A stretch of 64,000 nt of DNA from Seiridium cupressi (Eukaryota > Ascomycota > Sordariomycetes > Amphisphaeriales > Sporocadaceae). The notes under the pieces are model-generated. The model had not been told where the DNA came from and did no database searches. It was given only the letters and a program-made list of their open reading frames with translations. The position numbers were made by a program, and so were the translations under genes. The stretch covers positions 124,001 through 188,000 of the forward strand of contig JARVKI010000042.1 in assembly GCA_036674765.1 (NCBI GenBank), read 5' to 3'. Shown piece by piece: positions 3,189 through 49,400 of the stretch; positions within the stretch are counted from its first letter, which is position 1, and each line of letters begins with the position of its first letter.

Positions 3189-4882
3189 ATCCTCCTTTTC
3201 ACAATGCGACGACTGCGTCCAGCCTCGCCCACGGCCACCGGGTGTCGCCCCTCTTCAGCTGTAACGCCAGTATGTCCTTCTGGTCTTCGGCCGCATACGA
3301 TTTGGAGGGTGGTCGATTTGTGGTTTCGCCAGGTACGGCGTTCGTCGCCTTAGGAGCTCGTGCTCATCGAAATATTCTTCTGGGCCGAGATTCAAGGGGT
3401 CTCCGGGTTCGACTTTGAAATCTGCAGGTTGAAGATGCGGGAGACGCCAGTGCTACGGCAGCGAATTGATCTGAAGTTCCTCGGGCTGGTCGAAGACACA
3501 GACTGTCGTCTGATGCGCGTCGTATGTTGACAGAAGCACTAGGTCTCGCGATGGCTGGTCTGACAATCTGAAAAATGTTGGTCGGTAGCGCCTCTGGGAG
3601 CTATGTGCTAATTCAACGTTGTCCGTGACCCTGTGGATCCAAATCTCCAGGGTGGTCGAAGCTCCAATGACACCCGACCGACCCGCTGCACCCACTAATG
3701 ACGGGTCCAGTAGCTGCTGCTAGCGGTCCGGAAGGTTGCGCCGGGACCAACTCAAGCGTGGCGTGAATCCGCTGCCAGCCAACAAGTCAGTGATTCGTGC
3801 TTAATTAAGCCCTACGACTTTGGAACTCCAAGAAAAGGCCTTCTCTTTCGAAGTGAAAGGAGAAAAAGGACAGTGGCCGCAGGGGGCACGGGGTTGCGGA
3901 CACTCCTAATCCTAGCAGCCTGGTAAGAAAACACCCCCTGTCTTACGGACCCGGCAGCCCGTGCAGGCCTCGCTGAAGCACGGAGCACGCCACGCGAGCC
4001 TGCTCCAGTGATCTCGAGGTTTGAAACGCTGGATTCCGGAGCACCATCCTCTGTCAGCCCATCTTCCACTCCACATGCAGCCAGGAGCCATCGAGCAGGC
4101 ACTGCACCTTTGTACGCAGCGAATCCCATGTCTCGGAGTTTTGGGAAGTCAATTTATTTGCTTCGCTGTTGCGGAAGTGGCGCCGATCAGTACCCGATGG
4201 AGTATAGCACCATCTACTTGCTGAGCCTTTTGAAGTTTTTGTATTCTTTATTTCAGAATACGGTGCTCCCCAGCACCACATATCGGAATCAGTAGGACAC
4301 CGGCAGAGTCCGCCATTACAATTCACTTTCAGACAGCAGAACTAGGTATGTTTTAGTCGTGATCGAGGTGATACACGCAACCATAGGTATCTCCGCCCAA
4401 GATCCATCTCGATTCGGTCATTTGAGCCGATATCATTGTCCGAGTTGACAGTGTGGGTCTGTGCACATTTATGTACACAAACCTACAATGTATGCTGGGT
4501 CCCTCCTTGGCACGTTAACGTTAGGGAAGTATCGCGACTTATAACCTGGTTAGCCCTAAAGCGTCGTTCAGGCGAGCTGGATCTTTTTTACGTGCTTCGT
4601 TGACAAGCTGGTAGGATATACTACACCGATCTTGGCGTGAACGACATGTCTATATCCAGTGCAGTGTCAAGTGGGACTCGGATTCCTCTACAGCTGACTG
4701 GGCACAACGCCGTTTGAGAGATGGCTAATGGTTCAATTTTGTCAATCTCTGACTCTGGTATTAACTTTTCCCGACCTGACTGCTACCTAGCTTGAAGTGG
4801 CATTCTATATTCAAGCTCAAATCGATCGTTCTCGGCGTCCATCACATTCCTGCCATTGCGCGTTGACTTGGACAGTCTTCCG
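3189..4882. other. Upstream region of kinase, partly coding-like
   Basis: Between 3420 and 3189 (minus strand) three successive short stretches look like protein but lie in different frames (see findings). A minus-strand open frame at 3695-3453 could be an exon or leader sequence; I do not recognise it. From about 3700 to 4882 I see only overlapping short open frames and no gene. Confidence 0.5.
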
Positions 4883-5195
4883 CTACGAGCTCCCAGGCAC
4901 GAGCTTGTTGATCGTCTGCTTGATCTTGGAACCAACACCTGATCCATCTCCATGCTGTATCATGAATCACGTCAGCTCATGTTCCAGGTGCAATAACGCT
5001 GGTCTGGTGGGCATGTACCGAGGCACGTCTCTCAGCGCCCTGGATGAAGGTGCGTTCGTTGTTAACGGCCTGGTCACTGAGACCGTTGCGCTTTCGCTCA
5101 AGCTCATCTTGGTGCTGTGTTTGATCAGCATAGCCAATAACTTGGTGTGCTGCCATTGCAGCATTGTCAGGGATGCCGTGGCCGTCTGAAGACAT
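4883..5195 (-). CDS. Small conserved hypothetical protein, 82 aa
   Basis: Two exons, 5195-5019 and 4954-4883, with a 64-nt intron (4955-5018) that has a good GTACAT donor, a GCTGAC branch site and an ACAG acceptor. The product is a hydrophilic 82-residue protein, rich in Asn, Gln, Glu and His in the N-terminal two thirds. It ends in a Gly/Ser/Lys segment (GVGSKIKQTINKLVPGSS). There is no signal peptide or membrane segment. The frame stays open upstream to 5408, but the ATG at 5195 gives a compact start consistent with small fungal proteins of this type. Function unknown. Removal of the intron joins the tail smoothly, which supports it as a real gene. Confidence 0.6.
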
Positions 5196-5895
5196 GGTGC
5201 TAGGACTCTGGTCAGGCACAGTTGAAAACGGTTTGATGTTCAATGGTATTTGGCAAAATGGGGAGTCAAATCTATTTCGAGCAATAATTGACATGCGTTC
5301 GATGGTGATGGAGGTGGAAGATGGACTTGCGGGAGAATGAGCCCCTTTATCATTGAAAGCTGAAAATAAGCCGGCCAGGTTTGACGTCAGTTCTCCAACT
5401 ATCTCCAAACCCGAGAGGAGGCCACACTGTCAATCCTCCACAAGATAGTACTTGGTGTTGCGATATGCGATCATGGAGACGTCATCTCACAGGTATCGTA
5501 GATCTTTGTCACGCTTTGGAGCGCTGGAGAAGTTGGTGGCGTGTTGCCTGCTGACACAAAGGGGGTACAATGCGAATGGCCACCATGGAGCTTGATATTG
5601 ATGAGGGTAGCTCGATCGATTTCTCCAACGCTGGATGACCCAGGCACTTACACTTGGTGGGGACATCATGTCATGATTGGATATATCTACAGAGTGGGCA
5701 AGCTTCTCATCTATCAATTCTTTCGTGTTTATTATCTAATATCATGATTTCGACATCCTTGCTCCCCCAGCCAGATTATCGTTGTAACACCGTAGAGTCA
5801 ACATCCATACCACGGCATTTTTTTTTTTCCCGACTCATCTAACAAGATAGTAGACACGCTCGTTTCCTGACGTGTCGTCTCGTACGCTTTTCCAC
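5196..5895. other. Intergenic region
   Basis: Upstream region of the minus-strand 82-aa gene and downstream region of the next minus-strand gene. A run of T residues lies at about 5818-5829. No convincing gene is visible. Confidence 0.5.
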
Positions 5896-6909
5896 TTAGG
5901 AGCTTCGATGTTTATGGCACCGGTTAGAAGATGAGTTTTCTGAAGGGCTACGGCAGTTCGGCTGTATGCATAGTCCCATGGAAATCTTTTGCGGCTTCTT
6001 ACTTACCCGAGGTTTTGGGCGATGCTGCGCACAGAATTTCGCCCGAAGTGTCCATACCGCATTGCTGCACTCGCCCGATTTACATATCCTTTCATATTTC
6101 ACGTCAGGACGATGCTGTTGACAATAACCGGCCCATCGTGACCGGGTTCTGTTGCGGCATCCGTCTGACTTACATATTTTAGAAGATTCGGTATGGATCA
6201 ACAGCTGTTGAGTGGCCTCTTCTATATGGAAGGAGCACAAACTATAGGGAGCTTCCATCGGCGCATAACAACCTGACTTGACACACACGGGGCATTGGAG
6301 TTGTGGAAGCGGATTCCTCTCGCTCGTACGAGGATATCCATATGTACCCAGCTCTCCCGAAGTGCCCTGCTCCGCTGGTCCCTCACCGACCGGGGGTTCT
6401 GGATCGAGACTTTCTTCATTCGTATGTTTCCTAATTTCCATCCCCTGGGGGACTTCGGCAACAGGTGAGTCTTGACAAGAGTCTCTGATGCTGACGTTAG
6501 GCTCATGATCGAGATTCCGATCTTGCGTTTGACGGAAAGGAATTGGACTTACTTGACCTGCCTCAACTGGGGAAATTGGTAGTAAGGGAGAATCGATCAT
6601 CATCAGATCAGGGCGTTCCTCTTGTCCGTACGCACTTTCATCAATGTCTGCAGTTACTGACTCATGGACCGCCAAGTTCGAAGGAACCTCATTTATCGCA
6701 GTAAAATGGATAGACATAATGGCTGAATCTCTTGGAGATACCTGTTGGTGCTTTGATTGATGACAAGAGATAGTCAGTAAGACCCACAATATATATACAG
6801 CGGCGAGGGTGCGTACTGATGTAGGAATACAAGTGATGAACTTCTTTGGCTGCGAACAATCTACTTGCTCTTCGGATGTGTGCCGACCTCGAGGTGTCAA
6901 AGGTTCCAT
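5896..6909 (-). CDS. Hypothetical protein with four C-x4-C-x10/11-C-x2-H motifs
   Basis: Open frame of 337 codons. The C-terminal third has four regular Cys/His units: C-x4-C-x10-C-x2-H once, then C-x4-C-x11-C-x2-H three times, e.g. CKSDGC...GYCQQH. The spacing implies an array of small zinc-binding modules, possibly for nucleic-acid or protein binding. The N-terminal half is acidic and low in complexity. Residues about 30-52 read as a hydrophobic helix, but the same 66 nt has GTACGC at one end, a CTGAC branch and CAAAG at the other. It is a multiple of three, so it may be a frame-neutral intron rather than a membrane segment. No family recognised. It sits next to the decayed transposon block and could be accessory. 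Confidence 0.5.
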   Translation of the reverse strand: MEPLTPRGRHTSEEQVDCSQPKKFITCIPTSVRTLAAVYILWVLLTISCHQSKHQQVSPRDSAIMSIHFTAINEVPSNLAVHESVTADIDESAYGQEERPDLMMIDSPLLPISPVEAGQVSPIPFRQTQDRNLDHEPNVSIRDSCQDSPVAEVPQGMEIRKHTNEESLDPEPPVGEGPAEQGTSGELGTYGYPRTSERNPLPQLQCPVCVKSGCYAPMEAPYSLCSFHIEEATQQLLIHTESSKICKSDGCRNRTRSRWAGYCQQHRPDVKYERICKSGECSNAVWTLRAKFCAQHRPKPRVSKKPQKISMGLCIQPNCRSPSENSSSNRCHKHRSS

Positions 6910-7214
6910 GTAGACAAAGAATTAATTGCATTTTTAATAGAAACGTTTTCAGCAATCGCAATGTCAAGGGTTTCACGTAGACAAAGAATTAGGGTTCATA
7001 CTTAATGAGAAAGGGCTAGAAAGTAATTGTAACACGTCGTGCTACAACTGTTCTTCACCCTTATCCCACCATACACCACTGACAGATAATGACAATCTTT
7101 GGGCCTTGTCTAGCTAGATGTTAGTGAAGAAAGACATGGGGTATTCAGGCCATTGAACATGATGTACATGGCAGCAACGCTCCGATTTATCGACAAATAA
7201 ACAATCAAATAAGG
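6910..7214. other. Flank between Cys/His gene and transposon block
   Basis: AT-rich sequence upstream of the minus-strand Cys/His gene, ending at the TA that borders the left inverted repeat. A short near-direct repeat (TAGACAAAGAATTA) occurs at about 6912 and 6978. No gene is seen. Confidence 0.5.
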
Positions 7215-7216
7215 TA

Positions 7217-7405
7217 CAGACTGGTTCGAAATTGGCTTCCGCTTTTCGTCACTCTACTCTCTTCTTTGAGCACGGACGGTCCGCTTTTGGCGCTGACATG
7301 TATGTACCTTCTGTGGGCACTTAAAGTACCGTAATCGGGTAGGTACTTATGTCAGCCGAAAATGGCCCTCCTTAGATGTACGTTCCATGCTGATAGTACT
7401 AAGGG
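7217..7405 (+). repeat. Left terminal inverted repeat
   Basis: Matches the reverse complement of about 14462-14649. By eye about 80 of the first 94 bases agree, including a long shared core around 7256-7281. Agreement is weaker but continuous to about 7405. It is preceded by TA at 7215-7216. Confidence 0.85.
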
Positions 7406-7959
7406 GTAATCAAAATGTCCTAATATAAGCCACTCTCGAGATTTATAAGAGCGGTTATAGTATATACCGAACTTTCACGTTTATTCGCAATATGATCAAC
7501 TTAACTACATATTATACGATTAGGATCATGCACGGTCTTTCCGGGTATTGCTAAGCTTCTGTTACGGTTATTCAGTTTTAAATATATACTTATAATATAC
7601 GTATATTTAGATTTATTTTCTTACTCTCCCGAATAACGCGAATATTCGTATCTCAAACATAAAGTGGGATTGTTTGTTGTTTTACGATTTAACGTAATTA
7701 ACTATGCGTTAAAAGGCGCAAGTATACCATCCTAGTTTACTCGGTAATTGGTAATATATAATACTATAAGTCTACTGCCTTCTGTAAAGTTTATTTACTA
7801 ACGTTTATGCTAGCCTTTAGATAGAAAGGTCTCCCTTTTGCAATTCTATACCCGTGTTACGCTTAGTTACATATCTTCCTTATATACGATTTTCTAAATA
7901 TACTAAATATAAAAAAGAGCTATAATGCGCGAAGTTCGCCTTAATATATAAATCTTAGA

Positions 7960-9588
7960 ATAAATAGGGCCGATATCGACGATCGCATTAAGTCCGAAGT
8001 GGAGCTTAATACCGCTTTAAAGACTAATTACGTACCGGTATTTCTAGTATAATCCAAATCCGAGCTATAGAACCTTATCGAATCGCGTCGAAAACTAATA
8101 AGTCATTCGCCAAATCAAAGGCCTGTTTAAATCCCTGCTTATATTGCAATTTACTATAGGCTATACAGGTTTCGCTTTTCCCAGCCTTACAACGCATTTA
8201 CTACCAAATAGGATTTAAAAGGCGTTTTTCTCAAAATATAATTTATCGAATCGAATTGAGACCGTTTCTTAAATAACTTCCAACATAACGACGAGTATTC
8301 CTTAAATTCAAACGGGTCGCAAAACCTCGATAACGAATCCGAGGTAGAGTTGCTTTTTTAAGGCACCCCCGAATCTATCGACTCGAACGATAACTTTTCT
8401 ATTCGAGCCAACGAAAACCGCCTTACTCTAGGCTTACTTCCACTTCTGACTTTAGCCGACTAATAGGAAAATAGCAATTACAACGAAAAACCGCTAACTT
8501 GTATTTATTACTCGCTTAAACAAAAGCTTACAGTCAATGGCAGATACCGAACTAAAGATATAGAGCAGGACGTCGTTCTCGCACCAAGTGGTGTTTGGAA
8601 GCGATCGTTGTAATCGAATCTATAAAAGATAATAAACAAGCTGCCAGTTAATAAAACGTATCGAGCCAACGAAACGTACGTAATCGTATCCGTATCCGAT
8701 CGTTTTAAGCAAGACTTAATCAAAAGATTTAATGGACTTAACGTAAATTGGCCAATCCTTAAAAGCCAACTGATAACCTGGAGCCGGCTGTTTCGAGCTG
8801 GTAAAAGACTTCGAGTCATAATAGAATTTAAGTATATTAACGTCGGCGTTATGATTAGGAACGGTTAAGGGCGCGGACGAACCAGGAATACTACTATTAC
8901 ATAGATGCTATCCGAGAGACCGTTACAAATTACGGCCGAGTCGAGCACCAACGATAAACTGGCAGTTTGGAGCCGTGTTTATAACTTAATAAGGTGCCCT
9001 GGCCCACCTTGTAAATCAAATTAATACTGTATAATTAATCCCAAGACTAAGGAGCATCTTCCTTTAGGCCAGCTTTACATGCGGGAACTTATAGAATACG
9101 CCAAGAGTGGTGAGATATTTAAAACCCACGGAGATATTCCGCAATATATCCTGGACTAACTCAGGGCTGTGGCTCGAAACAACGAGAACCGCAAACGCAA
9201 GCGGGATAAATCACCTCTTTAAGGGCTTCCTCCGATTAATATTAATATCTCTGCCCCGCAGACTGCTAATCCAGATAGCCTGTCGACTATAGCGTTATTA
9301 AATCCCAGGTCGGTACCGCGCTTAAATATCCCTGGTCTTTGGGAAGACGTCTTTTACAATTATACCGCGTGGTAGCACTCGAGAGTTAGGACTAATGAGA
9401 ATAAAACTGAATTTACGAAGGTTTATAGTCTTATTTTAGAGGCTGGGCTTTCTTTCGATTAAGTACATTGAGGCTAGAACCCTGTATTTTATATAAAACA
9501 AGGCATTAAACTTGGCATTGCACGGAGCTTCGTAGAGGATGTTCCTGTATGGGTTAACGAAGGGATGGCGTTTAGTAACGAGCATTAA
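7960..9588 (+). pseudogene. Decayed conserved ORF of the transposon block
   Basis: A single reading frame can be followed for about 540 codons without a frameshift but with many TAA/TAG/TGA stops. Coherent segments include FRAGKRLRV, RCPGPPCKSN, HLPLGQLYMRELIEYAKSG, FKTHGDIP and, near the end, GIKLGIARSFVEDVPVWV. From memory these match a widespread fungal hypothetical-protein family with a cysteine-bearing centre and a C-terminal GIARRFV-type helix; I know of no assigned function. Many stops sit where Gln is expected (e.g. TAG in AW*HSRV), which implies C-to-T change. The 5' limit is uncertain. It converges on the transposase with only about 77 bp between the two stops, as if both belong to one element. 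Confidence 0.6.
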
Positions 9589-9665
9589 ATCTTTTTTTCT
9601 AGGTTCGTTTTATACTATGTTTCTCTGTATATAGACGTATATAAATTAAGGTTATTATATTTTCC

Positions 9666-10643
9666 CTACAGGGTTTCGACTGTGATACTTGAATGACGGA
9701 AATGTCCCTCGGCGCTTACTTGTCTTAACCCCACCGTGTTAATATACCACTTAAGGAACTTTATAAAGCCTAAAAACGATTCGCTAATAAAAATCTGCCA
9801 ATTACGCCTGATGAACGCCTTCAACTCCGCAAAGAACTCTTCTATTAGGTTAAAATCGGGCGAATATAAGGGAAGATAAAGCAGTTTAACCCCGGCTGCA
9901 GTATACATCTATACCACTCGGTCGGAGCGATAGATCGAAGCATTATCTATAATCAATACAGATCTCGGCTCGGGCCACCTGCCACAGTGACCTAAAAGCT
10001 CTGCAATAAAATCCTCGAATACCGCTCCATCGATAAATCCCTACAGCACTCGCGTAAGGAGGATGCCTTCCTGGGTATATGCGGGTAATATTTAATATCT
10101 ACGGCCTCGGTGTAGCCTTATTACTTAAATAGGCGTCACGCCTCGAGGCGACCATCCTGTCCGTCGTAATCCTACTCTGCCGTCACATCTAAATTCGTCT
10201 ACGTAGATTAACTAATAGGAGCGGAACTCAAACAATTAATACTAGTAGTAGTCTCGCAGGTCTGCGTTACGCTGCTGTGCTACGCGTCGAGCCGCTTTTT
10301 TAGTCTAGCCTTTTAAGGCTAATATTCTTCTAATGTTTTACGCAGTTACTAGGGCGTTAAATTTATCGTATAAAAAGACGGCTATTTCGTCGAGATATAA
10401 GTTAGATTTTATTAGTAGATATTCGCATAATATATTTAGCATGGTCTTTATAACTGTCCTCGGCCGACCGACGCGCCCCGTCGGCGCTCAAGTGCTTCTA
10501 AAGCATCGCAGATTAGAACGAATGGCTCGTATCGAACGAGTACTACAAGGGACTATTCTCGCTATTTCTACATCGGTTAATTCAAGTCCTAGGATTATAT
10601 CGCGTATCTGTCGATGCTTCAGATTTGATAGATTAGGTGCCAT
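9666..10643 (-). pseudogene. Tc1/mariner-type DD34E transposase, RIP-degraded
   Basis: One unbroken 326-codon frame from the ATG at 10643 to the stop at 9666, with about ten internal stops and no indel. The N-terminus (MAPNLSNLKHRQIRDIILG) leads a helix-turn-helix DNA-binding region, followed by GRPRTV. The catalytic core is visible: YVDEF (first Asp), LIIDNAS (second Asp) and YSPDFNLIEEFFAELK (Glu, 34 residues after the second Asp). Stops fall where related fungal transposases carry Gln, Arg or Trp, so CAA/CAG/CGA became TAA/TAG/TGA and TGG became TAG, the pattern left by RIP. It cannot make active protein as it stands. It lies inside the 7217-14649 inverted repeats and probably served that element. 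Confidence 0.88.
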
Positions 10644-11130
10644 GGCTTCCTGCCCACAGGCAGGATAAGGGCTGGAAGAGAAAGGAGAACAGGAAACCCC
10701 GCTGGCACGGATCGGTGGGGTGTGGGACTTTAAAGATTTAGCGCTTTGCTGCGCAACTGCCTATGCTTGTGCATATAAGGACCCTGGAATGTCCCGCACG
10801 CCATAGTCATGGGCCACATTCTTTACAGTACATACCCGTTGAAGCAGTTTGGACAATTTCCGCCCTTCCGCCTGTTCGATACTGCATTGAAATCACCACC
10901 AGAAGGGACGAAACAGTGATTTTGGAGTCCCTTTAACGCCTGATAACCTCATTGGCTCGACACTTTCAAAGATGCCCAGTGGCTTGCAGCTCAGCTGCGC
11001 TGGCAGGCTGTGCAACCATGCCTTTGCTTTAGGCTACCCTCAGTCAAGTCGTCAACCTAATCAATACCCCCAGACGGCTTCCCCTTAATAATCCCGTGCT
11101 CCAAGGCCTCCAAATAACCGTGACGCAACG

Positions 11131-14100
11131 ATGAGTTTTGGTTTTGGTGTCGGGGATTTCCTCGCCGTTATTAAGCTTGCTAACGAGATTCGGACGGTCT
11201 TCGCGGGCGCGCCTGATCAGTTTAAGCAGATAACCGCCGAGTGCGTTCGATTTGCTGTTCCCCCATTTGAAGCGTACAATCGCTAATATGCCATTTACCT
11301 AGTGTCCGGAATCTTTCTATCGTCCTTCAAGATGTCGAAGTCTTTACGATCGAACACGACGTGACCGAGGCCTAGGAGAAGAACCTACACGAGATCCGCG
11401 AGAGTTATCGGTGCGTATTAGAAGATACGCAACAAGAATTGCACAAATATTACAGCCTGGACTTAAGAGGTGGGACCTATAAAGAACGTGCGAAAAGGCT
11501 CTGGAAGCGAGTACAATGGGAGCCCGATGAGATTCGTAACCTTAGAAGTCGGATTACCGCCAACATTACTGCCCTCAATGCCTTCACCGCTGCCAACACC
11601 AGGGATAATGTCACGAAGCTAGTGGAGCGACAAGATCAGCAATAACGAAAGGAAATCTTAGACTGGCTCACGCCGATTGGATCTGCTCCTTAACAGTCCG
11701 ACGTGATCTGTTGTCGACAGGAAAGGACAGGCCAGTGGCTTATTAACTCGCCTAAGTACGCTAAATGGCAAACAACGAAAAGAGAGATTTTATTCTGCTA
11801 TAGCATTCCTGGAGCGGGCAAGACCATCCTCTCGTCCATTGTCGTGGACGACCTACAAGAGAATTATTACTCCAGGACAGATGTTGTAATATGTTATTTT
11901 TATTACGATTTCAAGCGTTAGGGCGAACAAAGCCTCGAAAGTGTAACTCTGAATATCTTAAGACAGCTGGGCCAAGCGGGTGCTGGCATACCCGGGAGTT
12001 TAAAAGTGCTTTTTAATCGGTACCAAGCTAAAAGTGGCCGACCAAGTCGTGACGAAGCTATTAAAACACTTCATTCTATTATTAGGTCATTTTTAAGAAT
12101 TTTTATCGTGGTCGACGCACTCGACGAGTGTTAAACATTTAACAGCTGCCAAAAAGAGCTTATATCGCAGCTAATTGAACTTCAACGCCTCGCTAACGTC
12201 AACATACTGGCGACTTCGCGCCCCGTGCCCCATATCATGGACAAATTCCGGGACTACACGTCACTAGAGATTCGTGCCAGCAAAGACGACATCAAATGTT
12301 ATATTAATAGGAACAAACAAGATCTCCCGGGCTTTGTGAATGACAGTCCAGAGCTACTGGAAGAGGTTACGACTACAATAATGGGTGCTGTCGATGGGAT
12401 GTATGTACTAATTGCTGAAACTCTTACCTCGCTAACGTTTACAGGTTCCTGCTCGCGAAACTCCATCTTGACTCTTTAAAAGGGAAGAGGTCACTAAGAA
12501 AGCTCCGGGAGGTTCTGGCCACCTTGGCTAAAGGAAATGATACCTATAATGAAATATACCGTAACACTATACTGCGGATTCACGGGCAGCTCGCGGATTA
12601 GAAGGACCTTGCTAATTAAACTTTAATGTGGATTGTGCACGCAAAAAGACCTCTAATAACGATTAAACTTGTCTATATATTAAGCGTCGAAATCAATAAG
12701 CGGGAATTCTTCGAAGATAATACACTAAATATTAGTAACACGCTTTCAGCCTGTTATAGATTGGTGGCTATTAACGGTGAAAGCGATATTATCCGATTAA
12801 TTTACTACACGACATAAGAATTCTTTAATAGGCATAGGAATAAATACTTCCCTCGTGTGGATGTTAAAATGGTAAATACTTATATTACTTACCTGTCCTT
12901 TAATGAATTCCGGAGCGGCCCTTATTAAAAAGAAGAGGTTTTTAAACATAAACTTCTTATATTTCCGTTATATAAATATTTAAGCGATTATTAGGGCTTT
13001 TATGCGAATGGTTATAATGATGAAAGTATACGAGATTTTTTAGACTAGTTAAATCTGGTAAAAGGATCGTGTTAGGCGATAATGGTTAACGATAAATAGG
13101 GAAATTATCTTAAAAGGGTTCCTTATAAAGTGACTGGACTTTATCTTGCTGCGCACTTCGGATTAAATGTTATTATCGTGGCATTAACTTTAGATGATAT
13201 TAACGCTAATGTCCAGGATAGTTATGGTAGGACGCCGCTATCGTGGGCTGTAGAGAACGGCCATAAGGCTGTAGTGCAACTACTGTTAGACAAGAATGCT
13301 CAGGTCGATTTGGCAGATATTGAATATGGGCGGACGCCGCTGTCGTGGGCTGCTCGGTACGGCCACGAGGCTGTAGTGCAACTACTATTGGACAAGAATG
13401 CTCAAGTCGATTCGGCAGACATAAGCGGGCGGACGCCGCTATTATTAGCTGCAGAGAACGGCCACAAGGCTGTAATGCAACTATTACTCGATAAGAATGC
13501 TCAAGTCGATACGACAGATAATATCGGCCAAACGCCGTTATTATAGGCTGCTTGGTACGGCCAAGAGGCGGTCGTGCAACTACTACTAAACAAGAATGCT
13601 CAGGTCGATTTGGCAGACATTAAATATGGGCGGACGCCGCTATTATTAGCTGCAGAGAACGGCCATAAGGCTGTAGTGCAACTACTGCTCGATAAGAATG
13701 CTCAAGTCGATACGGCAGACAATAGCGGCCGAACGCCGTTATCACAGGCTGCAGAGAACGGCCACGAGGCGGTCGTGCAACTACTGCTCGATAAAAATGG
13801 TCAAGCCGACACCTTAGATATTATTAGGTGTTGATGTATAGGATTAAAATGGGCTGTATGGAGACGATTAACCTTTTGCTTGCGTGCCACCATCTCGATG
13901 CTAATGGAACAGATCATTTGGGCTCAGCTGCATTATCCTTCGCTGCCCGTTTTGGTTGGTGACCTTGAGATGTTTAAGCAGATAATAGCTCTGCCCGATA
14001 TCGATTTCCTCTTAGCAGATTCATTCGGCCGGACATCTCTTTGGTGGGCCCGTTACAAAAACATAAAACCATCGCGAGACAGTTACTGGAACTAAACTGC

Positions 14101-14270
14101 TCGAATAATAATGTACTGACGCCTTTTATACCGACTAGAGAGCCTGGTTATTTCAGCATTTATGGCCGAGAGTGTGACATTTGCATGTGTAACATTGAGG
14201 ATCCGTACTATTAGTGTGATGTTTGTACATATACATAGATGGTGACTCTAATATTCGTCAGGAATGCTAG
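11131..14270 (+). pseudogene. NLR-type gene: NACHT-ankyrin-ZZ zinc finger, degraded
   Basis: The N-terminus (FGVGDFLAVIKLANEIR...) is the helical domain common in fungal NLR-like proteins. Intron 11241-11302 (62 nt) restores its continuation VRNLSIVLQDVE. The NACHT domain has Walker A IPGAGKT (about 11810) and Walker B FIVVDALDEC (about 12110). A second intron, 12401-12444, restores DGMFLLAKLHL. A helical linker follows, then at least six ankyrin repeats (about 13205-13830). The end (about 14167-14230) reads CDICMCNIEDPYY-stop-CDVC, a ZZ-type zinc-finger pattern. In-frame stops occur throughout, many at expected Gln positions (DEC*, YTT*EFF), and there is frame loss after the ankyrins. Intact relatives act in fungal non-self recognition and heterokaryon incompatibility. 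The gene lies within the inverted repeats. Confidence 0.85.
13205..13835 (+). repeat. Tandem ankyrin-coding repeats, 99-102 bp period
   Basis: Six near-identical units with VVQLLLDKNAQVD cores beginning near 13271, 13373, 13472, 13571, 13673 and 13772, each preceded by GRTPL and GH(K/E)AV. Units differ by only a few bases, indicating recent duplication or gene conversion within the array. Confidence 0.9.
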
Positions 14271-14461
14271 AGCTTAAGAGCTTGCTGTTTCATAGAAACT
14301 CACATTCTCTTAAAGTCGAGTTGACCAATATATATCCTCTTCGACCCGGCTTCATTATTGCTATTTAGCACACTACCTTATTTAGTGTAATTTGCAATTC
14401 TTTGCAGAATTTCCCGATCGCTTGGATCTATACGACGCTTTGGGCACAGTGTATATCTAGA

Positions 14462-14649
14462 CGGTAAGTATTGTCAGCATTATGAGTACATTTGAAATGG
14501 TCCTTTTTTGGACGGGAGAAGTACCCCGCATTTCAGCTACTCCGTGGGCCTGAAAAAGGTACATATCTATCAGCGCCAAAACTGGACCGTCCGTGCTCAA
14601 AGAAGAGAGAAGAGTAATTAAAAGCGGAGGCCAATTTCGACCTCGTCTG
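14462..14649 (-). repeat. Right terminal inverted repeat
   Basis: Inverted partner of 7217-7405 and followed by TA at 14650-14651. It ends about 280 bp beyond the stop codon of the neighbouring minus-strand cyclase gene, so an insertion here would not have broken that gene. Confidence 0.85.
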
Positions 14650-14930
14650 TAACGAGCTCTAGACCTACTGCTGTTTCGTTCGATTGCCACATTCGCAACA
14701 ATGGTACCCCCGGAGGGCAGCGGGAGAGGGGCTGGCCTGGCCCAGCTTTGGAACAGTTTCATTTCACTTTAGGACCCATTTTCGTCCTTTATTCTTGTTG
14801 TCTGCTACGTAACAGTCAACCACAGGGGAAACAGGACAGAAAAAGATAATAGTTGGACCATGGTTGTGTCGAACTATTCCAAATCAAATTTATCAACGCC
14901 CGCTTGAGACATTGATACAGCTACATAGGT

Positions 14931-28688: not shown

Positions 28689-31486
28689 ATGACACCTTCA
28701 ATCCTTTCCGTTGCGGGCGCTGCCCTTTTTGCCGCCCCGGCTCTGGCTCTGGTTACGGCTGCGACTACGACTACGACTGCGGCTACGAAGAAGACCTACC
28801 AGGAGGTCGATAGCATGGGCCCCGGCAACTTTTTTGACAAGTTTGATTTTTTCGAGGTACGTTATTGCCATTCCATGGCTGCAATGAACCACAGCCTGAA
28901 CCCGACTGACACCCACTCAAGAGTAAACTGTCAGAGCTTCCCTACCGTTATGACATCGACCCGACTGGTGGATATGTCCGTTATCGTAACAAGGCCGATG
29001 CTTTCGACAAGGGATATGCCAAATACGACGTGGACACTGGCCTCCCCTATCTCGGAGTCGATTACACCAACCCCTATCCCAAGGGTGACAACTTCGGCCG
29101 AAGCAGTGTGAGGATTGAAAGTAAAGACTCTTATGGCAAGGGCCTCTACGTCTTCGATATTGCTCACTTCCCCGCCAGGGTTGATGGTGCTTGGCCAGCC
29201 ATGTAAGACCACCCATGACTTGTCCTTGCGCTTCTTGATGTTAACATTACTTCAGTTGGACCTACGGAGACTGGGTGGACAGCTACGACAACTGGCCCAA
29301 ACATGGCGACATCGACATCTACGAGAACTGGAACAAGTACGACTTCAACCGCCAGACCCTTCACACCAAAGACGGCTGCTGGATCAAGGGAACAGACCAG
29401 CAAATGACAAACACGCTGGATTCCTACAGCTGTAACTACCAGCAAAATGGTGTGTTTGAAGGCATGATGCAATACGAGTATCAAGGATGCAGCTCTCAGG
29501 AAGCCTCGGGCACTTTTGGTAACTCTGATGGTGGTGTCTGTAAGTCAATCCAGCTATTAAGACAATGGTCCTAGTTCTAACCACGCGCTAGACGTCGTTG
29601 AATGGACTGACGACCATATCAACATGTGGAGTTTCCGACAGGGTAGCGTTCCAGCTGATATTACCGCTGGCAACCCCGATCCGTCCCAATGGAGTGGACT
29701 GCCAACTTTCAGCACCGTGTCCAACGAGGGTAGCTGTGACATTGACACCTACTATGACAACCAGAAGATCGTGTTCAACCTGGACTTCTGCGGCACAGCT
29801 GGCGATGACAGCTACTACTGGCTACAAACCGACACCTATAAGGCGAACAACAAGATGGAATGCCCCGAATACGTCGGTAGCAACCCCTCAGCTTTCAAGG
29901 ACTATTACTTCCTCATCAACTCGGTCAAGATCTATGAGAAGAAGGCTGCCACTACGTCCAGCACGTCATCTTCTGCATCAAGCACTTCCACATCCAGTGT
30001 CTCTAGCTCCACATCTTCCACCGCTAGCACCACGTCTTCCACTGTCAGCACAACTTCTTCCACTGCCAGCTCAACATCGTCCAGCGCCAGCACAACGTCT
30101 TTTAGCACCTCGAGCTCTTCCAGTGCTTCCTCCAGCGCCACCGAAACATCGTCTAGTGTCAGCACCTCATCGGCCAGTGCCAGCCAGTCGACCTCCACCG
30201 TCAGCGGCACAAGCTCTTCCGCCTCAGAGACTTCAAGTCTAACCAGCTCCTCCTCTGCCAGCGATTCAACCACCGGATCTACTAGCTCTTCATACTCTGT
30301 CACTGGCTCAGCCACTGGGTCGACTACCGGATCTATAAGCTCTTCGTACTCTGTTAGTGGATCTATCACCGGTTCCGCATCTATTACTGGAAGCGTTTCC
30401 GGTTCATCTTCTTCTTACTCTGCTGGCTCGACAAGTAGCGCGATCTACAACGAGGAGGATTCCTGCGATGACGATGACGAGGATGCTTCCGACTACCCTA
30501 CCGCCACCGCTTCGGGTTACCCTGCCAAGGGCGCACATGACGTGACTGTCTCCGGCTCTGCCGCACCTACCCAGAACCAGTCCGGATACCCCACTGGGTC
30601 TTTCTCAGGCTACCCTGCTAACAACATCTCTGTCTCCGCCACTTCTTACGCCACGTCGACCATCTACAGCACCAACGTGTACACTGTTACATCATGCGCT
30701 GCTTCCGTGACCGATTGCCCGGCCAAGATGGGACAGGTGACCACTGAGGTCATCGCTGTGACCACCACTGTCTGCCCCGTGACTGCGACCGAGACTGCCA
30801 CGCCTGTCGGCCCCATTATCACCAGTGTTCCTGCTGGATACACCACTAGCACCCAGTACATCACCAAGGTCTACACCATCACTTCATGTGCTCCTTCGGT
30901 CACGAACTGCCCTGTCGGCTCCGTCACCAGCGAGGTGCAGACCACTGTCACTGTGTGCCCCATCACCGAGGCCACCGCGACAGCTATTGCTACAGGTGGA
31001 TCGAATACTGGCAGCTCCGGCTCGTCTGGCTCAGGATCTAGCTCCTCTGAGAAGTCTAGCAGCAACGGCAGCACCGGCTCCAACACTGGCTCCAACACTG
31101 GCTCTGGCTCCAGCTCCGGTTCGGGATCTGACAAGGGATCGTACGCCTCAAGCTCCGCTAGCCCGGCCAAGTCTGGCTCCAGCAGTAGCCCCAGCAGCGG
31201 TACGGCCTACTACGGCCAGGGCAACTCGACAAATGTCGCGGGTACTGGCTCGTCGTACATTGTGGTCCCTACGACCGCCATCGTTGTCCCTGTTCCTTCC
31301 AAGGCCGCCAACGGCACCGTCACCACCATGTCATCTTCGTCGCCGTACATTGCCACATCGGCTTCGTCGACTCCCAAGGCTAGTGGCTATACCGTCAGCG
31401 CTAATGGTGCTGAGTCCATGCATGTCGGTGTCTTCGGAATCTTGGCTACCGTTAGCGCTGTTGCCTGGGCTGCTCTTTTGCTCTAG
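28689..31486 (+). CDS. Secreted GPI-type GH16 protein, 875 aa
   Basis: Four exons: 28689-28856, 28922-29202, 29256-29539 and 29592-31486. A signal peptide (about 1-25) precedes a GH16-type beta-glucanase fold (about 40-320; WPAIWTYGDW, QTLHTKDGC, FNLDFCG). The motif normally written ExDxxE reads DIDIYE here (Asp codon at 29308-29310), so the usual nucleophile Glu is Asp. A Ser/Thr-rich stalk follows, then two copies of a roughly 55-residue module (YTVTSCAASVTDCP and YTITSCAPSVTNCP), a Gly/Ser region and a hydrophobic C-terminus typical of GPI attachment. This implies a cell-wall or plasma-membrane location and a role in beta-glucan binding or remodelling. Activity is doubtful given the substitution. 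Confidence 0.9.
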
Positions 31487-32430
31487 TTGGATGGCTGTGC
31501 TATAGCTATTTCTTTGGGTTGGATATAGTTATCTTCGGACATATAAAGTATTATACAGATAATATGACATTAGTTCCCAATCAATCATTTCGTTCGAGTA
31601 ATCGTGGTATTCCTAGGCTGTGCAATCCGTTCACCAAGCACGTTTCCTTGCCTTTCTATCTATTAGTCAACAAAGTTTAGGTAAACTAAGAGTTCACTTG
31701 ACATGTGATTGGCGTCTCAACTCATATATCAGCTAGTTCCTTGTCAATACTATTATAGTATGGAAGTTGTTTGAGTGATTGAATGGGGATGATTAACCAG
31801 CTATCACTGCCACAACCGCTTTCGTATTTTAGTACCTTTAGTTAATGTTGCTTGGACCATTAAGTTGGATTTGAGCTGGCATAAATTTGTTCTTAAATGT
31901 AAGAGGAAAGAAATAAAGACAAATCTCAACAGCACCGATCTCCGTGCGTAAAACCTGAGGCTCTGGCGTATGGTCTCTAACAGTTCTCCTTGCCTATAGC
32001 CAAATGCCACCAGTCCGTGTTACTTCCCGATCATGTCGAATGATTCACCGCGTACAGCCCACCCTTCTGGCGCTGATTAAAAAAATATGTTACTCAAAAA
32101 GCCAGCGTCAGTTGATGGTGTCAAGAAGTTGAATATTGAATACCACGGAAGCGACGAGACGGCAGTAGTGCATACGATTTGGCACGCCTCAATTTTCCCT
32201 CGTGTCAGCCGGGCAGCCCCGGTACATAATGGTTTCACCCGGGTTTCTCATACTTGCCCGTAGTTTTGCACGATTGACGATTGATAAGCATGCCTCGCAA
32301 TCCTTTAGACCCGGTAAGTCCGAAATCCGAAATGCGAGCCGCATCGTCGAACCGATTTATACGCCGACTGATACATAGGCCTCAAACACGTACCCCAACC
32401 TCATCGTTTAGCTAAAACACATAGCCCATC
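31487..32430. other. Intergenic region
   Basis: 3' flank of the GH16 gene and promoter of the hydrolase gene. No gene seen; a minus-strand frame at 31804-32010 lacks any recognisable feature. Confidence 0.5.
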
Positions 32431-44891: not shown

Positions 44892-46442
44892 ATGGTTGGT
44901 TGGAACTCTTTACCCAATGAGCTGAGGCTCATCATACTCAACGACCTGTTCGCCTCTGAAGTACCATCCTTCCACAGGACGCGCACTTTCCGCCGCAGAT
45001 ATCATCAATCTTCATACGCTGCAGTGTCACGGCAACTCCAATGGTATTTCGAGAGGAAAAACTTTGAGTGCCTCCAAATACGACAAGCAGATCTACAAGA
45101 CTTTGGTAGGATAATGACAGAAGAGCGGAGACTTGCATTGCGCACCCTGTGGCTTTGCGTTGAATTCACACCTTATACATGCGACAAATGCCATTCCGAA
45201 GAAACAAACGAAGAAGCTGCGGCAAACAACGTCACATTTACTCATGCGCTGTGGAATCTATTCACCACATTGAGCGAATGGACAGCTACGGATGGGACCG
45301 ACACAAAGTGTCCGCGGCTAACATTAGCCCTGAGTGCCTACTCACCAAGTGACAAAGACCATCATTTCCGGGATCACCGCTTCGATGATAATTGCTCAAT
45401 GTTTTTCTGGGACGATCCAACCGTTCATCATGATCCAGCACATGGTTGGTACTCAGGGACACAGGTCTTGCCTTCCCAGGCTTCGAGGTTGAGGCTGCTT
45501 GGAAAGCCCCTCCACTTCGACTTCGCCCAAATGGAAACGGATACGAGAAACCTACCGGAAATACGTTTCGTTCATACACTGCGGATACCTCGTCAATTCT
45601 ACCGACAAATTCCAGAGTTAGATATCATTCTCAAGAGCCTTCCGAGACTACAAACGTTTCAATATGAGCCATGGAAAGAAGTAACAAGCGAACGAGACTG
45701 GGAGTGTGTAAAAGGGCTCGGGAAGCTATTGGCAGCACTACCAACATCCTTGAAAAGATTATCTGTCTATCAAGGTTTAAGTGAGAGTATCAATCAGGAG
45801 ATCAAGTATGATTCCAGTGTTCTCACTGCTTTCTGGCTGAGTTCTCCAAGACTAAGTCTTTGGGAGCTCAATGCATCTTTCATCACCGAGACAGAAGATT
45901 TCTTTCGACCATTTGATACAAGATACCGACCCAAGGAGTCTGTTTATAGTGATCCCAGATGTGTGGCTTCATGGCGGGAGTTGAGGGTTCTTACGATGAC
46001 CACAAGGCTCCTCGGTCCACGAAGACACGGACAAGGACAGGAGCTCGATCGTTTTCTGAGAGCCGCTGCAGCAGCTGTCTTGCGTATGCCAAAGCTCAAT
46101 ATTCTGGAATTGTGGTACGGCCGTCGTCAAGAAGGCCGCATCTTTCGCTATACGCGTACTCCGGCGGAAATTCTTATCGAATGGCGAGATATGGACAACA
46201 CACCGGCATCCCTCAGTTCACATGTCATAAAAGCTTGGCAGAATATTGCGAAGTGTAAAAGGCGCCCTTTTCGCTTGGAATACGATACTATACAGCGGCG
46301 CCAGATCAGGTCTCGTGGGTCCATGCTTCTAGAGCTGAAGACATCTTACGCCGTTGTGAGTGAATTGTCCAGAGCGCAACTTTTGTGGGAGTCGAGGAAT
46401 TTAAGAGTTGTACGGCGCATTCCGCCACACGGAATATTATGA
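44892..46442 (+). CDS. F-box domain protein, 516 aa
   Basis: Intronless. The N-terminus GWNSLPNELRLIILNDLF is a fungal F-box, which in known members binds Skp1 so the protein can act as substrate receptor of an SCF ubiquitin ligase. The downstream layout (basic patch, SYAAVSRQLQWYFERKNF, then RTLWLCVEF...) is common in a large, fast-evolving family of mould F-box-like proteins of unknown target. There are two CxxC-like cysteines (CDKC) near residue 90. No signal peptide or membrane segment. The in-frame ATG at 44880 adds only four residues; 44892 puts Met directly before the F-box and is preferred. Confidence 0.82.
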   Translation: MVGWNSLPNELRLIILNDLFASEVPSFHRTRTFRRRYHQSSYAAVSRQLQWYFERKNFECLQIRQADLQDFGRIMTEERRLALRTLWLCVEFTPYTCDKCHSEETNEEAAANNVTFTHALWNLFTTLSEWTATDGTDTKCPRLTLALSAYSPSDKDHHFRDHRFDDNCSMFFWDDPTVHHDPAHGWYSGTQVLPSQASRLRLLGKPLHFDFAQMETDTRNLPEIRFVHTLRIPRQFYRQIPELDIILKSLPRLQTFQYEPWKEVTSERDWECVKGLGKLLAALPTSLKRLSVYQGLSESINQEIKYDSSVLTAFWLSSPRLSLWELNASFITETEDFFRPFDTRYRPKESVYSDPRCVASWRELRVLTMTTRLLGPRRHGQGQELDRFLRAAAAAVLRMPKLNILELWYGRRQEGRIFRYTRTPAEILIEWRDMDNTPASLSSHVIKAWQNIAKCKRRPFRLEYDTIQRRQIRSRGSMLLELKTSYAVVSELSRAQLLWESRNLRVVRRIPPHGIL

Positions 46443-49400
46443 GAGCCAGACGGCATGGGCTGTCAGCAAGTTGGTTGAGAGATCTCTGTGAGCTTCTAAT
46501 CATAATGGCATGTTGTTAAATACTTGTTGTTGCCCATTCAGGATTAATAGATTCCTTGATCATACCGATCCTGGTACAGACACCCTACGAGAACATAATA
46601 AACCTATATGCCTATGTTTGGAAGGGTGCCACACCCTACATTTCGTATCTCAGGAGTTTCAGTCTACGGAATGGGAAGTTTAGCCTGATGCCAGCACCGT
46701 AGAACCTCGTATGCAGCTGACCTTAGAATTGCAAGTATCCCTGCCAGGCCAACTAATGCTTCTTATATACACAAGCAGGCGTGTCTACGTAAAGAGAAAG
46801 CGGATCTAATGGTCATGCTGCAGCGACTTAGAGGTATCGTGGAAGTGATGAGAGCTTCTCTACCACGCTCTTTCCCTCATCCTCCAGGTAAGCATGGACA
46901 ATTTCGGTACCAAGAATGTTACCCATGGCTTAGTAGTGCAGCTTATGCTAATCTCTGACCGTCCATCCCATTTTCTTCTCTGGAAAGGTCGGTAACTACA
47001 ATTATGTGGAGAATGTGAGAGACTGGATGAGTCAGAATCCGAGTATGCCAGCTCCTCGTAAACTATGAGTGGTCTGTATCCCCTTCTCTTACGACTCCGG
47101 GATTCCAAAGTCCCCTAGACCAATGAGTTCGCAAGATATTCACAAAACGGAGTCTTTGATCAAATTGTCGACTAACTGAAGTAATATTCTTGAGAAAAGG
47201 ACACAAGGGCGGCAAGTTCGCCGTGCCTGTTCGTTTTTGCTATACCTATTGTGAAGGGGGTCCCAACATCGAGATCATATATAAAGGCACCACAGATTAC
47301 ATCATTCAACACGTCACAAGCAAGTTCAAGCTTACAGCATTGAACAAAGCACACCATACCGTCTCCAGATCTACACTTCACGAACTTGATCCTGTTCGTC
47401 CTACATGAGTATATAGCCTCGAGGGACATGAGCGTGTACTTGTCGAAGGAAGGGACAAGTAAATGAGAAATCTCCAAAACCACATCAAAAATCTAGAGAA
47501 ACAGAAGCATGAGATGGATGCGCATCAGAAAGTGCAGGACCTGCTTATTGATGCAGAGCATGATCTGATCAAATCACTGGAGCGAGACGCTGGAAGCTCA
47601 CCCAGCCCCATACTCTGTGGCATCGTGGCCCGGCCTCTGCCCCCAATACCAGCTCCTGTAACCGGCCGCGAACGCCTTATCCATTCATTTACGGTCCCTC
47701 CGACTCGGCTCTGAGGTGACATGATTTGAGCATGCAGCAACGATGATGTTGGGGCATTGGCAAGCAAACGACAGGAAGAGCGCCCTGAGAGTGGGAAGTC
47801 TCTGGAACGACAGAGAACCAAGGGTTGATAATATGTCTCAGACAGCGCAGCCCCTAGCTCGTGCACAGATTCTGCGACTCGGGTACTGTAAAACGTAGTT
47901 TCGGATGATCTCACCCCCCTCACTAAAATGGTTGAACGAAACGGCCCCTAAGCGCTTTTCGAGATAGCGGGAGAGGCTACCTGGGATGTACGGGCTGGGC
48001 CTTGCTCCAGGCATGGGTGCCATCAATCATGCATTGCATACATTAGCCAGATCAGCAAACGCATTTCGCGAACCCCGGAGAGAGCGCCGGGGATGTTGTT
48101 CCGAATAAGCCTGCAGTGGCTAGGGTAGAAAATGCATTAGCCCAGGAGCCGCTCGTCAACAACGCATCAATTGAACCCAAGACGAGAAAAGCCTTCATAT
48201 ACTCGATATCGAAGTAGCTAGTACCACCGGTGCGCGTTATATAGTATGTCCGAACCATGGATACTGTCAGTGGCTTGTTAATCCCAATTGCCATCTGCAG
48301 GCTTTTTCGACTTTTCGTAGCTCCATGGTTCACGGATGACTTCATCTAGACCATTGGAAATGGCGGGGATCAGATCCTTTCAATACCATATATACCTGAG
48401 ATACACGATAACAGATGGTGTGTGGACAGCTTACTTGCTGATAGCAAGGCACACCCGTTTTCAGTCGGCCATACTTGCAGTCTGCGTCGTTGTTGGGCCT
48501 GCAAGGCTTTCAGAACATGTTACATGATACCGTTTCTGGGCTGTTGGTGCCTCGCCCTTTTGTTTATTACGCCCTGGGTCGGAACGTAGGGTTGAGTAAG
48601 CATTGGACCACCACGTCATTGCTGCTGGGAACGTATTACATCGCTCTACTCAAGCCATTGAATATGAAATCCTGGAAGACTCTGTGTGGCAGACAACTTC
48701 TGGACACACATTTACAGGCGTCGTGGAAAGATCACAATGGGAACGTGCGAATAATGTAAGAGCCACAATTTTGAGACTTCTGCTATTTGCATGAAGAAGG
48801 AGCAGCATGTATCGTCTGTAGACGACGCCGTGTGCCAAAGGGGAAATAATTTGCTTCGCGCCTTAGCCGAGCTTGAGGTTACGCAAATTGTAGTTTACCA
48901 ATTAATTCTTCTGCCTTTTTCATGTGCCAGGTATGTTACTTTTGATCTAGGAAAGCGATATGCGTATGAAATGATGGATCTAGTTATTCAACTGATTTCC
49001 ATACTCTTCTGTCCCTGATCCATGATGTAAAGTAAGGTTGGTGACCTTACCATGAAATACCGTAAGTCACTGAGTCAAAGACGCAGCGAATATCCAAGCG
49101 TCGCATTAACCTCGTTCCTGCTATGTTCCCAAGTACGCAAGCTGTTTGATGTCATGCGACCATGCGTCGGGCATCTGCTGCTATTGCTGCAAGGCTTCCT
49201 TTGTTACTCGTGCGCCCTGTAGTCGTACAACCGCAAACAAACAATCGCGGGCGCCATTGCCGCCCCGTTCCGAGGCGAACGCGACTAGAGAGATGGTCAA
49301 CTCATTTTTGAGTTATAGGTGTGATTGATAACTTCAGCACTTGGTATTCGAACTCTGAGCAAGTTTGTCTTCTTCCCCACCTCGTTACCAGGGATGGTCC

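What the first reader, a model, noticed from the sequence alone, without database searches (positions are those of the whole stretch)
7217..14649. A 7.4-kb mariner-like transposon that appears to carry an NLR gene as cargo
Two inverted repeats of about 190 bp start with CAGAC, share TCGAAATTGG, and each abuts TA. This is the signature of a Tc1/mariner insertion. A DD34E transposase lies inside, together with a second ORF and a complete NACHT-ankyrin-ZZ gene. Tc1/mariner elements are normally under 2.5 kb with one gene. Cargo NLRs are known on giant Starship elements, but I know of none on a cut-and-paste mariner-type unit. If confirmed, it is a route for moving non-self-recognition genes.
Basis: partly seen in the sequence, partly recalled or inferred. 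Interest (0 to 1): 0.88.

Follow-up and report, generated by a model that had tools for sequence, protein, structure and literature searches.

The report
Mariner-type fungal transposon carrying an NLR
In this mould genome a now-dead 7.4-kb mariner-type jumping element encloses, between its two ends, an immune-receptor-like (NLR) gene, and three more relics of the same transposase each lie back to back with a different gene of that kind, which hints that some small jumping elements have spread fungal self/non-self recognition genes.

Summary
The observation mostly holds. Window 7217-14649 is bounded by inverted repeats (81/94 identical, weaker to ~190 bp), each next to TA; no other match to the repeat was found in the 45.4-Mb genome. 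Inside lie an uncharacterised ORF, a DD34E transposase and a NACHT-ankyrin NLR with two inferred introns; no other pair of ends was found. The NLR is not "complete": ORF, transposase and spliced NLR carry 11, 10 and 14 internal stops. Against a Seiridium cupressi homologue, 66 of 68 differing residues (aligned residues 61-567) are C>T/G>A, the mark of RIP. It is a dead single copy; no empty site could be examined.

Unexpected: the four loci found of this transposase lineage (C42, C117, C228, C144) each have an NLR-type gene head-to-head, about 0.2-0.6 kb away, in four architectures; three Tc3-type loci show none in the 3.4-4.9 kb scanned. No ends were found at C117, C228 or C144, so a resident NLR module remains a hypothesis.

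New variant of a known kind.

The parts
7215..7216 (.). TA next to the left end (putative target-site duplication)
7217..7406 (+). left terminal inverted repeat: 94-nt core 7217-7310, weaker gapped similarity to about 7400
   Evidence: with its partner the only match in the genome search
8497..9588 (+). ORF1 pseudogene: uncharacterised fungal protein family, no Pfam match; 11 internal stops plus a terminal one; similarity to relatives begins at about 8452
9714..10643 (-). DD34E Tc1/mariner-type transposase pseudogene (DDE_3), 10 in-frame stops
10644..11130 (.). 487-bp region between the divergent transposase and NLR starts; shows no RIP (TA/AT 0.80; composite index -0.69)
11131..13834 (+). NLR pseudogene: unclassified N-terminal region, NACHT/NPHP3_N, weak winged-helix match, ankyrin repeats; exons 11131-11240, 11303-12400, 12445-13834 (inferred); 14 in-frame stops
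11241..11302 (+). inferred intron 1 of the NLR
   Evidence: the spliced frame follows P0017
12401..12444 (+). inferred intron 2 of the NLR (GTATGT ... CTAAC ... CAG)
   Evidence: the spliced frame follows P0017
13835..14250 (+). frameshifted remnant of the NLR tail; not RIPped
   Evidence: compared by eye with P0024 and P0026
14461..14649 (-). right terminal inverted repeat: 94-nt core 14556-14649
14650..14651 (.). TA next to the right end

Best explanation
Window 7217-14649 is the RIP-inactivated remains of a three-gene Tc1/mariner-type (IS630-Tc1-mariner, DD34E) transposon. Inferred working of the living element: the transposase binds the long terminal repeats, excises the unit and inserts it at TA, so that ORF1 and a divergently transcribed NLR gene travel with it. 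Shown here: TA-flanked terminal repeats found only at this unit, the catalytic triad, the gene order ORF1> <transposase NLR>, no closer pair of ends detected, and mutations mostly of RIP type. Inferred: binding, excision, integration, movement of the NLR as part of the unit, and any benefit of the NLR to the element or host.
For: Outer repeats far beyond chance and flanked by TA. The repeat was found nowhere else by the DNA search, so the arms are not two stray copies of a common repeat. No inverted repeat above shuffles brackets ORF1+transposase, the transposase alone, or the NLR alone. DD34E spacing intact. Of the aligned NLR residues 61-567, 66 of 68 differences from S. cupressi P0017 can be explained by C>T/G>A (52 in the RIP TpA context), 2 cannot, against 7.9% expected for random replacements; all 9 aligned stops there fall on Q, W or R. 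The NLR has two inferred introns, so it is a gene copy rather than a retrocopy. Three further loci of the same transposase lineage have an NLR-type gene in the same head-to-head position, and C228 also has ORF1 in the same place.
Against: Single copy; no empty site or second copy could be examined, so movement of the NLR with the ends is not shown. RIP is patchy: strong over about 7300-10630, moderate over about 11373-13830, absent in 10644-11130 and 13831-14460. A 7.4-kb repeat RIPped as one unit would be expected to be mutated throughout, so the transposase half and the NLR may have been RIPped through different partners. The right repeat shows little RIP. No ends were found at C117, C228 or C144.
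Confidence: 0.74

Rival explanations
1. The NLR was captured once: an ordinary two-gene (ORF1 + transposase) mariner had one end next to an NLR, and a mutated or alternative end beyond the NLR was used, making a single composite. The C117, C228 and C144 neighbours would then reflect insertion of this transposon near NLR promoters.
For: RIP spares the transposase-NLR spacer and treats the two halves unequally. At C117 and C228 NLR domains are present without element ends being detectable. The spacers of the loci share no detectable sequence (window, C117 and C228; window and C144).
Against: No trace of an inner end in the spacer or beside the NLR. Insertion preference would have to put the transposase in the same orientation, about 0.2-0.6 kb from the start of an NLR-type gene, at all four loci.
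Confidence: 0.3
2. Chance neighbourhood: NLR/HET genes and dead transposons both accumulate in the same repeat-rich regions, and the outer repeats in the window are unrelated to the transposase.
For: The genome has many such genes: 78 NPHP3_N matches and at least 151 HET matches. Three of the four loci hold RIPped DNA or other repeats (window; C117; C144). The pairing at C228 and C117 was noticed after the fact; only C144 was a prediction.
Against: About 5 such matches per Mb give roughly 0.0025 per locus for a divergent one starting within 1 kb, about 2e-8 for three further loci if evenly spread (arithmetic; both counts are lower bounds and clustering would raise the figure). The three Tc3-type DDE_3 loci show no NLR or HET domain in 3.4-4.9 kb at E 0.001.
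Confidence: 0.08
3. The NLR is a resident host gene, and the element inserted beside it; the right repeat is a second, end-only insertion in the opposite orientation.
For: An almost identical NLR, RIP aside, exists in Seiridium cupressi (P0017), whose location is unknown here.
Against: A solo end would be expected to have companions in the genome; none was found. Both arms begin at the same base and lie next to TA.
Confidence: 0.12

Closest known systems
ToxTA (formerly ToxhAT) of fungal wheat pathogens (PMC6737239, PMC12506042; passages read)
   Same: TIR-bounded unit (74-bp TIRs, 14 kb) with a TA duplication, which its authors think likely falls into Tc1/mariner; carries extra genes, the largest a Patatin-TPR gene that they count in the NLR family.
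   Different: Described as non-autonomous, with no transposase shown to move it; cargo includes ToxA; NLR type Patatin-TPR, not NACHT-ankyrin; one independent transposition reported; sits inside Starships. The unit here has its own DD34E transposase and an ORF1, and is dead.
Starship elements (PMC12506042, PMC9594970; passages read)
   Same: Mobile fungal elements whose accessory genes include NLRs.
   Different: 170-196 kb in the case read, with a DUF3435 tyrosine-recombinase captain and direct repeats; here a 7.4-kb DDE element with terminal inverted repeats and TA, and no DUF3435 in a six-frame Pfam scan at E 0.01.
Canonical Tc1/mariner elements of fungi (recalled)
   Same: DD34E DDE_3 transposase, TA flanks, inverted repeats.
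   Different: Normally one gene and under about 2.5 kb (recalled); here three genes, 7.4 kb and long imperfect repeats.
NLR pseudogenes of Podospora anserina (NWDp1 and NWDp2 inactivated by RIP; NWDp3 directly preceded by a transposon relic; PMC1805685, passages read)
   Same: NLR genes inactivated by RIP; one NLR pseudogene directly next to a transposon relic.
   Different: There members of a host gene family; no terminal repeats enclosing NLR and transposase are reported in the passages read.

Membership tests
IS630-Tc1-mariner transposon | DDE_3-type transposase with DD34D/E catalytic triad | tested here: met
   DDE_3 E 8.2e-23; D149, D233, E268 with 34 residues between the last two
IS630-Tc1-mariner transposon | terminal inverted repeats bounding the transposase | tested here: met
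IS630-Tc1-mariner transposon | TA target-site duplication | tested here: inconclusive
   TA at both ends, but no empty site was available to prove a duplication
IS630-Tc1-mariner transposon | evidence of movement: further copies or empty sites (supporting, not defining) | tested here: inconclusive
   no further DNA-level copy in this genome, a result against recent activity; empty sites could not be sought because no relative's DNA is held
fungal NLR | nucleotide-binding NACHT or NB-ARC domain plus superstructure-forming repeats | tested here: met
   NPHP3_N E 2.4e-31, NACHT E 2.2e-7, Ank_2 E 3.7e-51 in frames read through the stops
fungal NLR | N-terminal effector domain | tested here: inconclusive
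   N-terminal region conserved in relatives but without a Pfam match at E 0.01
Starship | DUF3435 tyrosine-recombinase captain | tested here: not met
   six-frame Pfam scan of 7217-14649 at E 0.01 lists only DDE_3, NPHP3_N, NACHT, AAA_22, GPIID_WHD and ankyrin families
ToxTA-like element | shared ends or shared genes with ToxTA | not testable with these tools
   ToxTA sequence not compared; no patatin or MFS family matched in the element

The most novel reading that the evidence does not exclude
The transposase lineage is a dedicated NLR-bearing mariner family: an NLR-type gene is a resident, exchangeable module divergently paired with the transposase (NACHT-ankyrin; NACHT-ankyrin beside a HeLo/HET-s gene; HET-NACHT-WD40; HET-ATPase-TPR), so that a small cut-and-paste element distributes and reshuffles self/non-self recognition genes.
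Probability: 0.4. Interest if true: 0.86.

Novelty: new variant of a known kind. Interest (0 to 1): 0.7.

Why it matters
How fungal NLR repertoires expand, turn over and spread between species is open; known vehicles are Starships and, for a Patatin-TPR gene, ToxTA. A small DDE element with its own transposase and an NLR would be a simpler vehicle, and the head-to-head pairing is a signature that can be counted in any annotated fungal genome, so the idea is directly testable.

Tried and rejected
Wrong frames and failed steps: and the transposase query inside script, used the transposase one base out of frame (9713-10642) and say nothing about it. The right frame (9714-10643) was used. The large protein search could not be repeated because the other two searches went to ORF1 and the NLR, so transposase relatives outside this genome were searched in the right frame only in viral contigs. 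The query called NLR_A was out of frame (the same part was in frame). The tblastn step of scripts 50 and 52 failed on a malformed file and was redone.

Relatives of the DNA: a plasmid search, viral contigs and genome contigs gave no relative. Metagenome scans were capped at zero.

ORF1 function: AlphaFold2 model of the relative P0003 (mean pLDDT 71, pTM 0.34); the best PDB match had E 2e-3 and TM 0.14, so no function is claimed.

Inner ends: none bracket ORF1+transposase, transposase alone or NLR alone. Sequence like the window's ends was not found above shuffles near C117, C228, C85 or C144. Gap-tolerant alignments gave scattered scores of 44 and 48 at C62 and C54 (maximum 38 in 20 shuffles of one locus) and up to 52 with a longer query (no shuffles run). 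They were gapped and unpaired, and the one that I read in its surroundings (C62) was not next to TA; I treat them as noise.

C144 inverted repeat (45328-45790 / 49334-49796) was first thought to be the element's ends. Rejected: its left arm abuts the transposase fragment where that is cut at about residue 139, its outer edge is not like the window's ends, and 95 of 104 mismatches are RIP-type; it looks like two copies of another repeat.

C117 RIP: the mutations in that transposase fade with distance from a RIPped LTR-like element at 115540-117250, so they do not show that the transposase itself was repeated.

C62: ORF1 relative without any Pfam-recognised transposase or NLR domain in 4.9 kb on the left and 4.9 kb on the right, the latter starting inside ORF1, a result against an obligatory trio.

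Full report
WHAT WAS CHECKED. The window is G000:C42:124001-188000 of a 45.4-Mb, 228-contig fungal assembly. The NLR in the window is 75% identical, over 92% of the query, to a protein of Seiridium cupressi (P0017), and another NLR of the genome (C85) is 83-87% identical to one of S. cardinale (P0034) in its main pieces. I infer a Seiridium or close relative; the species was not determined.

THE ENDS. Inverted repeats 7217-7310 and 14556-14649 are identical at 81 of 94 positions and continue with gaps to about 190 bp. Both begin CAGAC and abut TA. The local-alignment score is 127 against a maximum of 23 in 30 shuffles. The 189-bp left repeat matched only these two places in the genome search, and the whole 7433-bp unit matched itself, its own ends and one 69%-identical ankyrin stretch at C85. 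No inverted repeat above shuffles brackets ORF1 plus transposase, the transposase alone, or the NLR alone.

THE GENES. ORF1 (+, 8497-9588) belongs to a family with members in Truncatella and Penicillium and in sources without an organism name (16 proteins listed at E up to 10, the weakest at 8e-35); the four relatives scanned have no Pfam match above cut-off, and the predicted fold of one gave no convincing match. The transposase (-, 9714-10643) is DDE_3 with D149, D233 and E268, 34 residues between the last two. The NLR (+, ATG at 11131) has NPHP3_N/NACHT, a winged-helix match below cut-off and ankyrin repeats and two inferred introns. Gene order: ORF1 and transposase tail to tail, transposase and NLR head to head, 487 bp apart.

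IT IS DEAD. In-frame stops: ORF1 11 plus the terminal one, transposase 10, spliced NLR 14 in 865 codons; after 13834 the frame is lost. Against P0017, residues 1-60 are identical; of the 492 aligned residues in 61-567, 424 are the same and 68 differ, 66 of the 68 explainable by C>T/G>A (52 with the RIP context) and 2 not; random replacements would be explainable in 7.9% of cases. Residues 568-659 have no counterpart in P0017. In the ankyrin stretch 178 are the same, 7 are RIP- or transition-type and 20 are other, with repeat units shuffled. P0017 ends at the residue where the window's frame is lost, so the tail was probably broken before RIP. Setting RIP-type changes aside, 490 of 492 residues (99.6%) outside the ankyrins agree with the S. 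cupressi protein. For ORF1 and the transposase the evidence of RIP is compositional only.

RIP IS PATCHY. Composite RIP index: left repeat 0.75, 7407-8496 0.71, ORF1 0.47, transposase 0.54, spacer 10644-11130 -0.69, NACHT part 0.19, ankyrins 0.05, tail -0.53, 14251-14460 -0.33, right repeat 0.05, flanks -0.60 and -0.52. RIP acts on copies over 80% identical and longer than 400 bp if linked, 1 kb if unlinked (PMC1805685, passages read). One 7.4-kb repeat would not be expected to leave such holes, so the transposase half and the NLR may have had different partners, now lost. This is the main result against a simple single unit.

THE LINEAGE. The DDE_3 family search gave six loci: C42, C228, C117, C138, C54, C70. 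Searches with the window's transposase, that of C117 and that of C228 give four loci of one lineage: C42 (window), C117 (47%), C228 (39-40%) and C144 (41% over 72 residues, E 1e-7, only). Dropped from this count: C138 and C54 (54-residue matches at E 1e-4 and 5e-4), which with C70 carry the HTH_Tnp_Tc3_2 domain, and the rows with E above 0.001 (C138, C54 twice, C85:50669, C167). C117: transposase 117253-118110 (-), HET-NACHT gene from about 118589 (+) followed by WD40 repeats, 478 bp. C228: transposase fragment from 204149 (+); NACHT-ankyrin gene starting at about 203248 (-), with one in-frame TAG and its domains in two frames; about 600 bp, the unrecognised first 98 residues of the transposase being estimated. 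ORF1 lies at 205138-205869 (-), as in the window, and a HeLo/HET-s gene lies beyond the NLR. These two neighbours were noticed after the fact. C144 was fetched to test the prediction: transposase fragment 45789-46001 (-), HET-like start at about 46415 (+, read by eye), then ATPase_2 and TPR matches, about 210 bp. The C144 domains are RIPped, lie in two frames and are weak: HET E 0.0055 and ATPase_2 E 0.0012, both below the curated cut-offs; TPR_12 just above its cut-off. So 4 of 4 loci have an NLR-type gene head to head, in four architectures, while 0 of 3 Tc3-type loci (C138, C54, C70) do in the 4.4, 4.9 and 3.4 kb scanned. These controls were listed at E 0.001, C144 at 0.01; at 0.001 C144 would have shown its TPR matches only. 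C54 has an NLR about 7 kb away in another arrangement.

CHANCE. 78 NPHP3_N matches and at least 151 HET matches in 45.4 Mb are about 5 per Mb, or about 0.0025 per locus for a divergent one within 1 kb, and about 2e-8 for the three loci outside the window. The counts are lower bounds, one gene may give several matches, weak or RIPped genes such as that of C144 are not in the rows listed, and clustering of NLRs and transposons would raise the figure, so I take it only as showing that even spread does not explain the pattern.

AGAINST THE FAMILY READING. No ends were found at C117, C228 or C144; the spacers share no detectable sequence; ORF1 was not found at C117 or C144, where other repeats interrupt the transposase, and occurs at C62 without a transposase or NLR domain in the stretches scanned; and the window's NLR is closer to that of C85, and to five others, than to that of C228, while C117 and C144 are not among its 19 matches.

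HOW IT WORKED (mostly inferred). Transposase binds the long repeats, cuts the unit out and inserts it at TA; the NLR, with its own introns and perhaps a shared divergent promoter region, comes along. [quoted passage not shown] None of this is tested here.

LITERATURE. None of the listings and passages that I saw reports an NLR inside a Tc1/mariner element with its own transposase, but the library holds only open-licence papers, and I read passages of five papers (PMC1805685, PMC12506042, PMC9594970, PMC6431247, PMC6737239), none of them whole. PMC6737239 (passages) says that the largest gene of ToxhAT has Patatin and TPR domains and that such proteins belong to the NLR family, and PMC12506042 (passages) reclassifies that 14-kb element, with TA duplication and 74-bp TIRs, as likely Tc1/mariner and renames it ToxTA.

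VERDICT. A real, dead, mariner-type unit enclosing an NLR (0.74); an NLR-bearing transposase family is suggested (0.4). Interest 0.7.

Noticed in passing
L036 (C228:195001-205000), 4100-8250: A HeLo gene with a HET-s 218-289 prion-domain match (E 1e-23) lies beside the C228 NACHT-ankyrin NLR, whose N-terminus resembles an amyloid motif by eye (recalled): a HET-S/NLR-type pair.
   Followed up: partly
L055 (C144:42001-51000), 45328-45790 and 49334-49796: A 463-bp inverted repeat with RIP almost only in the right arm (95 of 104 mismatches C>T or G>A from left to right) and a doubled short motif of about 17 bp at the right edge; looks like another repeat family.
   Followed up: partly
L040 (C117), 115540-115672 and 117118-117250: Direct repeats of an LTR-like, heavily RIPped element that cuts the C117 transposase; RIP fades into the transposase over about 500 bp.
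   Followed up: partly
L038/L039 (C85:28457-31419): Another NLR with in-frame stops, 83-87% identical in its main pieces to S. cardinale AB5N19_12486.
   Followed up: no
window 8497-9588 and proteins P0001-P0016: ORF1 belongs to a recurrent fungal protein family with a CPGPPC...YCW...HYKL motif and no Pfam match above cut-off in the four relatives scanned; it deserves a name and a survey of its neighbours.
   Followed up: partly
window 6895-6924 and 6962-6991: Two 30-nt direct repeats (90% identical) with starts 67 bp apart, just left of the element.
   Followed up: no
window 30501-32000: GC rises to about 0.60 and then falls to 0.38, with TA/AT between about 0.9 and 1.2.
   Followed up: no
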